From NCBI GenBank assembly GCA_017451735.1, contig JAFTNU010000018.1, forward strand, positions 1 to 35,232: DNA of 35,232 nucleotides, read 5' to 3'. Within the stretch, counting starts at the first letter, position 1. Each line of letters starts with the position of its first letter. Positions 20,899 through 22,812 of this stretch are shown here, one piece after another. Below the pieces are notes generated by a model that ran no database searches, was not told the origin of the DNA, and worked only from the letters and a program-made list of their open reading frames with translations. The stretch is from Clostridia bacterium. GTDB taxonomy: Bacteria > Bacillota > Clostridia > Oscillospirales > CAG-272. Made by a program: the position numbers and the translations under genes.

Positions 20899-21816
20899 AT
20901 GCCCATTAAAATACCGAATCTTTTGCCCGCAACGCAAACCCTGCATGAGGAGAATATCTTTGTCATCACCGAAAATCGCGCCATGACCCAGGATATCCGC
21001 CCTCTGCGTATTGTCATGCTCAATCTCATGCCGCAAAAGATCGTTACCGAGACCCAGATCGCACGCTTGATCGGCAATACACCCTTGCAGGTGGAGCTGG
21101 AGCTGCTGCAGACCGCCACTCACAAATCCACCCATACCTCCGCCGAGCACATGCTCTCCTTCTATAAGGTCTTTGACGATATCAAGGATCAGAATTTCGA
21201 CGGCATGATCATCACAGGAGCTCCCGTAGAGCACTTGAAGTTCGAGGAGGTGGAGTACTGGGAGGAGCTCTGCCGCATCATGGAGTGGAGCAAGACCCAT
21301 GTGACCAGCACACTGCACATCTGTTGGGGTGCCCAGGCGGGTCTTTACTACCATTACGGTATTGACAAGGTACAGCTGCCCGAAAAGCTGTTCGGTGTGT
21401 TCGAGCACCATCTGGATTATAAGCGCTCCATCCTGTTCCGGGGCTTTGATGATACCTTCCTGGTGCCTCATTCCCGCCATACGGCAAACCGCCGCGAGGA
21501 TATCGAAAGTGTGGATGCTCTGCGCATTCTTGCCAGCTCGGACGAGGCGGGAGTCTTTGTGGTCTCCACCGAGCGGGGCAGACAGATCTTTGTCACGGGA
21601 CATTCGGAGTACGATGCCGATACCCTGAAAAAGGAATACCTGCGTGATAAGAGCAAGGGACTTGACATTGCCATTCCCAAGAACTATTTCCCGGGTAATG
21701 ACGATACCAAGGAGCCCGTCGTCCGCTGGCGTAGCTGTGCCAATCTCTTTTATTCCAACTGGCTCAATTACTTTGTCTATCAGGCGACCCCTTACGATAT
21801 TACCAAGATTCAATAA
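20899..21816 (+). CDS. metA: Homoserine O-acetyltransferase (MetA type)
   Basis: A 305-residue acyltransferase matching MetA end to end. The catalytic Cys142 (HICWGAQAG), His235 and Glu237 (FVTGHSEYD) fall at exactly the family positions. Residue 111 is Glu (GAPVEHLKF); Gly at this position in E. coli gives succinyl-CoA use, whereas Glu as in Bacillus gives acetyl-CoA use, so this should be an acetyltransferase despite the common name homoserine O-succinyltransferase. The start at 20899 follows GCGAGG. Together with metY it turns homoserine into homocysteine. A terminator at 21842-21892 follows. Confidence 0.93.
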
Positions 21817-21841
21817 CGAAACGGCCGACATCAGCGTAAAG

Positions 21842-21892
21842 AGAGCAAGAGTACAAGGAGAAAATCCTTATATTCTTGCTCTGTTTGTTTTA
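21842..21892 (+). terminator. Terminator of metA
   Basis: AGAGCAAGA (21842-21850) pairs with TCTTGCTCT (21874-21882), with an inner AAGGA/TCCTT stem, then a T-rich tail. Confidence 0.75.
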
Positions 21893-21894
21893 TT

Positions 21895-22098
21895 GATGAA
21901 TTGATGCTGACGCATCATGAATTGGCTTCGCCATGATTTGCTCGCAGAATTGCTATGCAATTCATCGTTCACATGAATTGAATTGCAACCAATGTGCCAA
22001 GGCACAATTCATGCCGCAGGCAATTCATGAAAGCGAGAGCTTTCAATTCACGCAACCGCAAGGTTGCAATTCATTGTGCGTTCTCCGTTAAGGAGAAC
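21895..22098. repeat. Array of short variable hairpins joined by a constant AATTCATG-type linker
   Basis: About 200 bases hold eight small hairpins with different stems: TGATGC/GCATCA, TGGC/GCCA, GAATTGC/GCAATTC, TGTGCC/GGCACA, GCC/GGC, GAAAGC/GCTTTC, GCAACC/GGTTGC and GTTCTCC/GGAGAAC. They are separated by TGAATTG in the left part and CAATTCA in the right part (for example 22005-22013, 22021-22029, 22044-22052, 22067-22075). Two loops are GNRA tetraloops (GAGA 22035-22038, GCAA 22058-22061). No open frame of note is present. The block is bounded by a 12-bp inverted repeat, GAAACGGCCGAC (21818-21829) and its complement (22106-22117). This is the whole content of the 400-base gap between metA and the sigma factor gene. 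Confidence 0.75.
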
Positions 22099-22218
22099 AC
22101 GCATCGTCGGCCGTTTCTTTATGAATGATGGAATAAAAATTTTAAAGATCCTTCCACATTTTGCAAAAAACGCGGTCTTATATAGAGAAGGACCTTCAAC
22201 GATCGCAAAGGAGGAAAA

Positions 22219-22812
22219 ATGACGCATCAAAAACCACAAGAAGATCTGTTGACAGATGACCGTATCATAGATCTGTATTGGGATAGGAACGAAACCGCCA
22301 TCAGGGAGACCGATCTCAAATACGGCCGATTTCTTTACAGCATCGCGTATCACATCCTACACGATAAATGCGATTGCGAGGAATGCTGCAACGATACCTA
22401 TCTGCGGGTCTGGAATGCAGTTCCGCCCGAGCGGCCCACGGTGCTCCGTTTGTTTTTGGCAAAGATCATCCGCGGCATTGCCTTTAACCGTCTTACCGCC
22501 AAAAATCGCCAAAAGCGCGTACCCGCGCACCTGATCGATGATATGGATGATGTGGAATATTTCCTGCAAGGCGATCGGTCGGTAGAGGAAGAGGTGGCGG
22601 TAAAGGAGCTTGCCAAAAATATCAATGATTACATAAAGACCCTGACACAGATACAGCAGCATATATTTGTCGGTCGGTATTATTTTTCGGAATCGGTGGA
22701 GGAGATTGCCAAGACTGTGCAGATGACAAGATCCAATATCTATAAACAATTGAATCAGATCAAACAAGGCCTGAAAATATATTTGGAAGAAAGAGGTGAG
22801 AAGATTGACTGA
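22219..22812 (+). CDS. ECF-type RNA polymerase sigma factor
   Basis: A 197-residue sigma-70 family protein. Region 2 is at about residues 20-90 (YGRFLYSIAYHILHDKCDCEECCNDTYLRVWNAVPP), and region 4 is at about 135-190 (YIKTLTQIQQHIFVGRYYFSESVEEIAKTVQMTRSNIYKQLNQIKQGLKIYL). Region 3 is absent, as in group 4 (ECF) factors. The start has AAAGGAGG at 22206-22213. It overlaps the next gene, a single-pass membrane protein that is probably its anti-sigma factor. The regulon may include the adjacent protease. The inducing signal is unknown. Confidence 0.9.
   Translation: MTHQKPQEDLLTDDRIIDLYWDRNETAIRETDLKYGRFLYSIAYHILHDKCDCEECCNDTYLRVWNAVPPERPTVLRLFLAKIIRGIAFNRLTAKNRQKRVPAHLIDDMDDVEYFLQGDRSVEEEVAVKELAKNINDYIKTLTQIQQHIFVGRYYFSESVEEIAKTVQMTRSNIYKQLNQIKQGLKIYLEERGEKID

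What the first reader, a model, noticed from the sequence alone, without database searches (positions are those of the whole stretch)
21895..22098. Hairpin array with variable stems and a constant AATTCATG-type linker
Seen: eight different short stem-loops in about 200 bases, separated by TGAATTG on the left and CAATTCA on the right. Stems differ but stay self-complementary, two loops are GNRA tetraloops (GAGA, GCAA), and a 12-bp inverted repeat (21818-21829, 22106-22117) encloses the block. Random drift would not keep paired arms in every unit. It could be a structured non-coding RNA, a mobile repeat made of modular hairpins, or a protein-binding DNA array, and I know no named family with this plan.
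Basis: partly seen in the sequence, partly recalled or inferred. Interest (0 to 1): 0.75.

Follow-up and report, generated by a model that had tools for sequence, protein, structure and literature searches.

The report
Hairpin arrays jumping into terminators
A gut Clostridia genome carries several copies of a small, apparently mobile DNA element made of ever-changing hairpins joined by a fixed short word, this copy sitting inside what looks like the stop signal of a methionine gene, and an unexplained "RNA family" from human gut (Gut-1) turns out to match a piece of the same thing.

Summary
Window 21842-22102 holds a dyad array of seven linker-flanked hairpins plus a hairpin at each side. The linker-pair pattern recurs in the own genome (27 matches, control 0) and in 37 of 146 family genomes, 14 with four or more matches. 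In 395 distinct short inter-linker segments 89% of cells are Watson-Crick, against 52% when 3' halves are re-dealt. Within the genus the same skeleton uses eight linker words, on both strands in 39 of 39 arrays scored, and the first hairpin arm matches the array centre. Genus copies share ends; flanks of 19 of 42 pair over 10 nt or more, as terminators do, against 17 of 1722 crossed pairs. Three genus arrays pass Rfam's Gut-1 threshold. G-T is not commoner than A-C in stems (19:16, tRNA control 9:0), which leans towards DNA pairing. Best reading: a non-autonomous mobile element that folds as DNA and enters terminator loops. Mobiliser and function are not shown; RAYT is not associated.

The parts
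21815..21829 (+). 5' half of the probable metA terminator stem, split by the insertion
   Evidence: 17-nt inverted repeat with 22106-22122; relatives L232 and L233 carry the related stem GCCGACAGCTGTCGGC directly after metA
21830..21841 (.). junction; the 5' end hairpin and tail present in other genus copies are missing here
   Evidence: comparison with L064, L250-L252, L254, L260, L261; loss inferred
21842..21882 (.). hairpin A (AGAGCAAG..CTTGCTCT), outer module on one side of the array
   Evidence: recurs beside arrays in genus copies and without an array at C22 and C34
21896..22074 (-). linker-hairpin array, linker word ATGAATTG, read from hairpin B towards hairpin A on the - strand
21903..21916 (.). 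hairpin 7
21924..21932 (.). hairpin 6
21940..21972 (.). hairpin 5 (long, imperfect, central)
21974..21992 (.). core: doubled linker plus copy of a hairpin-1 arm; 21979-21990 pairs 12/12 with 22062-22073
   Evidence: (I10)
21994..22005 (.). hairpin 4
22013..22021 (.). hairpin 3
22029..22044 (.). hairpin 2
22052..22067 (.). hairpin 1, whose arm recurs in the core
22001..22076 (-). stretch matching Rfam Gut-1 RNA at 29.9 bits (threshold 50)
22078..22102 (.). hairpin B, element end, carrying the terminal motif CTCCGTTAAGGA
22106..22120 (+). 3' half of the probable metA terminator stem with T-rich tract
20899..21816 (+). metA, homoserine O-succinyltransferase (start codon taken as ATG)
   Evidence: Pfam PF04204 E 2.5e-141
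22219..22812 (+). sigma-70-like factor gene
   Evidence: PF04542 E 2.6e-10

Best explanation
It is one copy of a dispersed, non-autonomous mobile DNA element. Shown here: its interior is a dyad of variable hairpins separated by a constant linker word; in this genus copies share ends and often lie inside palindromes with the look of intrinsic terminators; this copy splits the probable metA terminator. Inferred: the element moves in trans as folded DNA, is recognised by its end hairpins, and enters the loop of another extruded hairpin. The array is a folding scaffold (separate hairpins, or in symmetric copies a ladder of four-way junctions closed by linker-linker pairing). Because it folds on itself, the two halves of the interrupted terminator can still meet, so the insertion costs the host little. 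Stems drift freely because only pairing is kept, by selection or by hairpin-templated repair; linker words change in concert.
For: Multi-copy: second full copy at C36 (78%); 27 linker pairs in the own genome against 0 in the control; 37 of 146 family genomes. Presence/absence: 18 of 18 genus relatives with metA have no array within 300 nt. Shared ends: terminal motif, up to 3 mismatches, in 19 of 21 genus genomes, reversed control 0 in each row. Target: outer flanks complementary over 7 nt or more in 27 of 42 against 350 of 1722 crossed pairs, over 10 nt or more in 19 of 42 against 17 of 1722; A-run upstream 32 of 42, T-run downstream 29 of 42. Pairing: 1639 of 1840 cells Watson-Crick against 52% in shuffles. 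Eight linker words; 39 of 39 arrays with 2 or more copies on each strand, one mismatch allowed. First-hairpin/core match: genus mean 10.1 nt (n 39) against 4.7 across words (largest 11, n 1274); loci without the genus skeleton 16 of 24 first units against 3 of 69 other units. DNA rather than RNA pairing: G-T 19, A-C 16, other 28 in 230 hairpins with 1413 Watson-Crick pairs against G-T 9, A-C 0 in 19 tRNA acceptor stems (Fisher p 0.016). The DNA minimum-energy fold of a symmetric copy (L392) pairs all four left linkers with the four right ones in nested order, z -11.8.
Against: No mobiliser found; RAYT and Y1 transposase genes are not associated with array-rich genomes. No target duplication could be defined. 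The empty metA sites are from other species, not strains, and in 4 of the 18 only stems of 4-5 bp were found in the first 70 nt. 15 of 42 genus copies have flank matches under 7 nt. The window copy lacks the 5' end hairpin and tail. Outside the genus skeleton the terminator target is not general: matches of 11 nt or more in 9 of 67 arrays against 103 of 4422 crossed, and by eye only three of them look like terminators (L400, L401, L403). G-T/A-C counts are small and relatedness of sequences is uncorrected throughout. The ladder is not the minimum-energy RNA fold of L389 nor a fold of the window copy. C18 arrays lie between prophage genes, not visibly in terminators.
Confidence: 0.6

Rival explanations
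1. It is a functional non-coding RNA (Gut-1), expressed from 3' UTRs, in which the constant linkers or the hairpin-1/core switch bind a partner; dispersal is secondary.
For: Three genus arrays reach the Gut-1 gathering score (57.2, 55.7, 54.5); Weinberg et al. 2010 (PMC2864571, passages seen) mark Gut-1 as certainly a biological RNA and group it with noncoding RNAs; copies inside terminators would be transcribed; two mutually exclusive pairings of hairpin 1 are conserved.
Against: No excess of G-U over A-C in stems; in two arrays Gut-1 also matches the other half on the opposite strand, as a DNA dyad would (L285; L023); several linker words in one genome; no transcript data either way.
Confidence: 0.2
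2. An ordinary MITE moved by a DDE transposase with a terminator preference; the hairpin array is passive cargo kept palindromic by template switching during replication.
For: Related terminal inverted motifs at both ends; same-ended elements carry other contents, such as DUF559 and NUDIX genes; G-T is no commoner than A-C in stems, as copying of one arm from the other would also give.
Against: No DDE gene recognised, though only open frames of 20 regions were listed and five frames run against Pfam; passive cargo does not explain the conserved blueprint across eight words and the first-hairpin/core match.
Confidence: 0.25
3. A duplex-DNA array of inverted binding sites for an unknown protein, the linker being the site and the hairpins spacers.
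For: Linkers nearly invariant within an array and inverted between halves.
Against: Spacers need not be self-complementary, yet the segments of 22 nt or less that were counted pair; several words per genome would need several proteins; the first linker's variants match the core, as base pairing predicts.
Confidence: 0.08
4. REP/BIME-type repeats mobilised by RAYT transposase.
For: Modular hairpins in both orientations; a partial gene that by eye resembles RAYT sits beside the same end motif in L350.
Against: RAYT in 8 of 14 array-rich genomes and 61 of 132 others (Fisher p 0.58); the two richest, G003 and G014, and also the own genome and G027 have none, while G129 has one; Y1_Tnp in 5 of 14 and 49 of 132; no GT[AG]G foot in the linkers.
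Confidence: 0.07

Closest known systems
Gut-1 RNA (Rfam RF01706)
   Same: Three hairpins joined by a constant linker (GUGAAAU in the model); matches hairpins 1-3 of these arrays; three genus arrays above the curated threshold
   Different: The model is 77 nt and was listed as noncoding RNA, human gut only (PMC2864571, passages); here the match is only part of a dispersed element with ends, a second inverted half, other linker words and, in the genus, a terminator target; arrays of the plan also come from herbivore-gut Clostridia
REP/BIME/REPIN repeats with RAYT (PMC6006769, passages seen)
   Same: Modular palindromic units in both orientations, intergenic, many copies
   Different: REPs carry a GT[AG]G foot; here stems vary within an array, linkers are constant, and RAYT is not associated
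MITEs; BOX and SPRITE of pneumococcus (PMC10969869, passages seen)
   Same: Short, no transposase gene, folded, intergenic; SPRITE is terminator-like
   Different: No target duplication defined; insertion inside terminator stems; modular array with swappable linker words
Integron attC sites (recalled, no call)
   Same: Variable stems kept complementary because the folded single strand is recognised
   Different: No integrase or attC boxes were sought; array of seven hairpins instead of one
Double-hairpin elements of fungal mitochondria (recalled; none of the 8 papers listed holds that phrase)
   Same: Mobile hairpins with compensated stems
   Different: Two hairpins, no linker-word array, organelle

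Membership tests
Gut-1 RNA RF01706 | Covariance-model score at or above 50 bits | tested here: not met
   Window copy 29.9 bits, E 4.4e-4; met by relatives L316, L307, L285, below it in other arrays
Gut-1 RNA RF01706 | Expressed as RNA | not testable with these tools
   No transcript data
REP/BIME | GT[AG]G tetranucleotide at hairpin foot | tested here: not met
   The eight linker words read lack it; the end hairpins were not scanned systematically
REP/BIME | Association with RAYT genes | tested here: not met
   8 of 14 array-rich against 61 of 132 other genomes, p 0.58
MITE | Terminal inverted repeats | tested here: met
   Shared CTTARCGGAGAA motif at both ends in genus copies; window copy retains one end only
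MITE | Target-site duplication | tested here: inconclusive
   Ends fall inside palindromes; no duplication could be assigned
MITE | Related autonomous element with transposase | tested here: inconclusive
   Open frames listed for 20 regions, five run against Pfam: cargo genes, one partial RAYT-like gene, no complete transposase recognised
CRISPR array | Direct repeats with unrelated, non-palindromic spacers | tested here: not met
   Spacers are self-complementary and the repeat inverts at the centre
Group IIC intron (terminator-targeting, recalled) | Group II intron RNA core | tested here: not met
   No Rfam group II match in 4 loci at E up to 1 or 20 loci at E up to 0.001

The most novel reading that the evidence does not exclude
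A new kind of mobile element that transposes as a folded single strand shaped as a ladder of four-way junctions, finds its targets by hairpin shape (terminator loops), and uses interchangeable linker words so that each lineage pairs only with itself; the 'Gut-1 RNA' is its DNA fold seen through an RNA model.
Probability: 0.3. Interest if true: 0.9.

Novelty: new variant of a known kind. Interest (0 to 1): 0.72.

Why it matters
It would turn an unexplained Rfam family into part of a mobile element, provide a natural case in which structure is kept while both stems and linker words turn over, and give many terminator insertions in gut bacteria for testing how folded DNA is mobilised and how terminators survive interruption. 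It also warns that paired covariation alone does not prove an RNA.

Tried and rejected
Rfam at curated thresholds on the window: nothing. Letter searches of papers for the linker and for 'gut-1 RNA' gave nothing relevant in the listings; a combined search found Gut-1 with its accession or source title only in PMC2864571. Searches for terminator-targeting elements, RAYT in Firmicutes and REP in Oscillospiraceae named no such element in the rows listed; a large study of structured RNAs in human microbiomes (PMC8040213, passages) does not mention Gut-1 in its main text. No blastn match of the window element in phage or plasmid records. A first end-motif pattern was mis-spaced and found only chance hits; corrected. 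RAYT and Y1 as required mobiliser rejected (one genome, G140, had a weak Y1 match and none). Terminator insertion outside the genus: no excess with 110-nt flanks (1 of 27 against 2 of 308), modest with 250-nt flanks (9 of 72; 9 of 67 after dropping genus-like loci). One search's '31 arrays outside the genus' held at least two same-genus loci and others with the genus skeleton; the recount without them is (24 arrays, 7 dropped). In a mixed-strand count G-T and A-C mismatches were 35 and 44, other 122. Three of 11 viral stretches (L220, L223, L228) and at least two genome hits (Microcystis L123, Granulosicoccaceae L129) are direct tandem repeats, not arrays. Six of 45 printed arrays were set aside before the word count (L275, L289, L291, L294, L311, L315: truncated, interrupted or wrongly cut by my pattern).

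Full report
What is there. The block between metA and a sigma-70-like gene (PF04204, PF04542) is an array of seven hairpins separated by the word ATGAATT on one half and its reverse complement on the other, with a longer hairpin at each outer side. Read on the - strand the order is: hairpin B, linker, hairpin 1, linker, 2, linker, 3, linker, 4, core (copy of a hairpin-1 arm plus doubled linker), hairpin 5, linker, 6, linker, 7, linker, hairpin A. The folds are far more stable than shuffles (z -12.7 and -10.4 as RNA for 21813-22122; -5.5 and -5.2 as DNA for the array alone).

It is one of many. A second full copy lies at C36 (78% identity), and the pattern of two linkers 4-30 nt apart occurs 27 times in the own genome, never in the reversed control. 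Of 146 genomes of the family 37 match, from 27 of 71 genera; some single matches there look like chance, and 14 genomes have four or more. Eleven viral stretches match; three are unrelated tandem repeats, the rest arrays or half arrays. Three arrays in the own genome lie between prophage head genes (terminase, portal, major head protein, virion structural protein).

Stems vary, pairing stays. From loci L056 upward, 395 distinct inter-linker segments of at most 22 nt gave 1639 Watson-Crick of 1840 cells (89%), against 52% (largest of 200 shuffles 55%) when 3' halves were exchanged among segments of equal length; 288 of 395 are perfect to the loop. Over all 465 distinct segments there are 233 different 5' arms. 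The set includes some chance hits.

Linker words. In the genus, copies that share the outer modules use eight words: ATGAATTG, GCGATAT, TCGATAT, GTGAAGTT, AGTGATGTT, AGTGATATT, GTTATGA and ATGAAATC. All 39 arrays scored have at least two copies on each strand, one mismatch allowed (6 of 45 printed arrays set aside). Several words coexist in one genome; the own genome has four (L064, L067, L260, L303). The first linker often differs from the others, and the core differs with it: TCGAGAT with ATCTC in the TCGATAT arrays, TCAAATC with GATTTGA in the ATGAAATC arrays. The complementary run between linker 1/hairpin 1 and the core averages 10.1 nt within arrays (minimum 6, n = 39) and 4.7 nt across words (largest 11, n = 1274). 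In 24 ATGAATTG arrays without the genus skeleton, the arm of the first left unit matches the core by 4 nt or more in 16, against 3 of 69 other left units (22 of 31 and 3 of 89 before seven genus-like arrays were dropped). Relatedness is not corrected. Hairpin 1 therefore has two mutually exclusive partners.

Target. In 42 genus copies with both ends, the sequences just outside tend to be complementary to each other: mean run 9.7 nt against 5.5 in crossed pairs; 10 nt or more in 19 of 42 against 17 of 1722. An A-run precedes in 32 and a T-run follows in 29. These look like intrinsic terminators with the element inside; 15 of 42 show runs under 7 nt. The window copy sits in the probable metA terminator: AACGAAACGGCCGAC before, GTCGGCCGTTTCTTT after. 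Of 21 genus genomes 19 gave a match; all 18 relatives with metA lack the array within 300 nt, and L232/L233 carry an intact terminator with the related stem GCCGACAGCTGTCGGC at that place. Outside the genus skeleton this target is not general.

Ends and relatives. Full genus copies have a hairpin containing CTTAGCGGAGAAT-like letters at one end and hairpin B, with the same motif inverted, at the other; the motif (up to 3 mismatches) occurs in 19 of 21 genus genomes, reversed control 0 in every row. Elements with this end and other contents also lie in terminator-like palindromes: a DUF559 gene (L341, E 7.5e-28) and a NUDIX gene (L343, E 6.5e-9); L342 has a small gene plus an array; a partial gene that by eye resembles RAYT lies beside the motif at a contig end (L350). 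I recognised no complete transposase with these ends, in a limited look. RAYT proteins (three tested match NF047646 below its cutoff) occur in 69 of 146 family genomes, with no link to arrays: 8 of 14 array-rich, 61 of 132 others (p 0.58).

RNA or DNA. Rfam's Gut-1 RNA matches hairpins 1-3: 57.2, 55.7 and 54.5 bits in L316, L307 and L285 (threshold 50), 43.7 and 42.1 in L014 and L023, 29.9 in the window. Weinberg et al. 2010 (PMC2864571; passages seen) list Gut-1 as certainly RNA, noncoding, human gut only. Yet in 230 distinct hairpins I count 19 G-T, 16 A-C and 28 other mismatches, where 19 tRNA acceptor stems from the fetched loci give 9, 0 and 0. RNA selection should favour G-U on one strand. 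In two arrays Gut-1 also matches the other half on the opposite strand (L285; L023), as expected of a DNA dyad. The numbers are small, but they lean towards DNA-level pairing. In a symmetric copy from another genus (L392) the DNA minimum-energy fold pairs the four left linkers with the four right ones in nested order, a ladder of junctions (z -11.8); the RNA fold of a sister copy (L389) prefers another pairing.

Most likely working. Shown: dispersal, shared ends, terminator-like surroundings in the genus, kept pairing, linker words. Inferred: mobilisation in trans as folded DNA, entry into a hairpin loop, and tolerance because the folded insert lets terminator halves meet. What the array does for the element is open. 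Confidence in a dispersed, mobile-type element to which Gut-1 belongs: about 0.85; in the folded-DNA mechanism: about 0.5. The checking changed counts, not odds.

Noticed in passing
L341 (979-2484), L343 (953-1906), L342 (966-2026), L350 (from 1055): Elements with the same end motif carry cargo (DUF559, NUDIX, a small unknown gene, a partial RAYT-like gene); in L341, L342 and L350 a TATAAT-like promoter precedes the gene, by eye.
   Followed up: partly
L056 3353-3509, 5700-5867, 8640-8764: Three arrays in the same orientation between prophage head genes, sharing hairpin sequences with one another.
   Followed up: partly
L058 2330-2700 and 3400-3720: The 3' end of a gene that by eye looks like serine dehydratase is duplicated; one copy has an array between stop codon and terminator palindrome, the other has none.
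   Followed up: partly
L017 around 1500: Solitary hairpin B without an array or hairpin A nearby.
   Followed up: no
L311, L324, L344: Another dispersed repeat (GCAAGAGGGAGTGATC..GAACCCGCCC-type) lies inside or beside these elements.
   Followed up: no
L342, L346: A further dispersed hairpin repeat (GGCTCCCTCCGGGAGGGAGC-type) occurs inside same-ended elements.
   Followed up: no
L366, L367, L370: RAYT genes sit at one conserved place, upstream of a GTPase-like gene (MAKPIVAIVGRPNVGKS by eye).
   Followed up: no
L389-L393 (G003): Arrays with about four linkers on each side and a different centre (ATTAAGG..CCTTAAT type), suggesting a distinct subfamily.
   Followed up: partly
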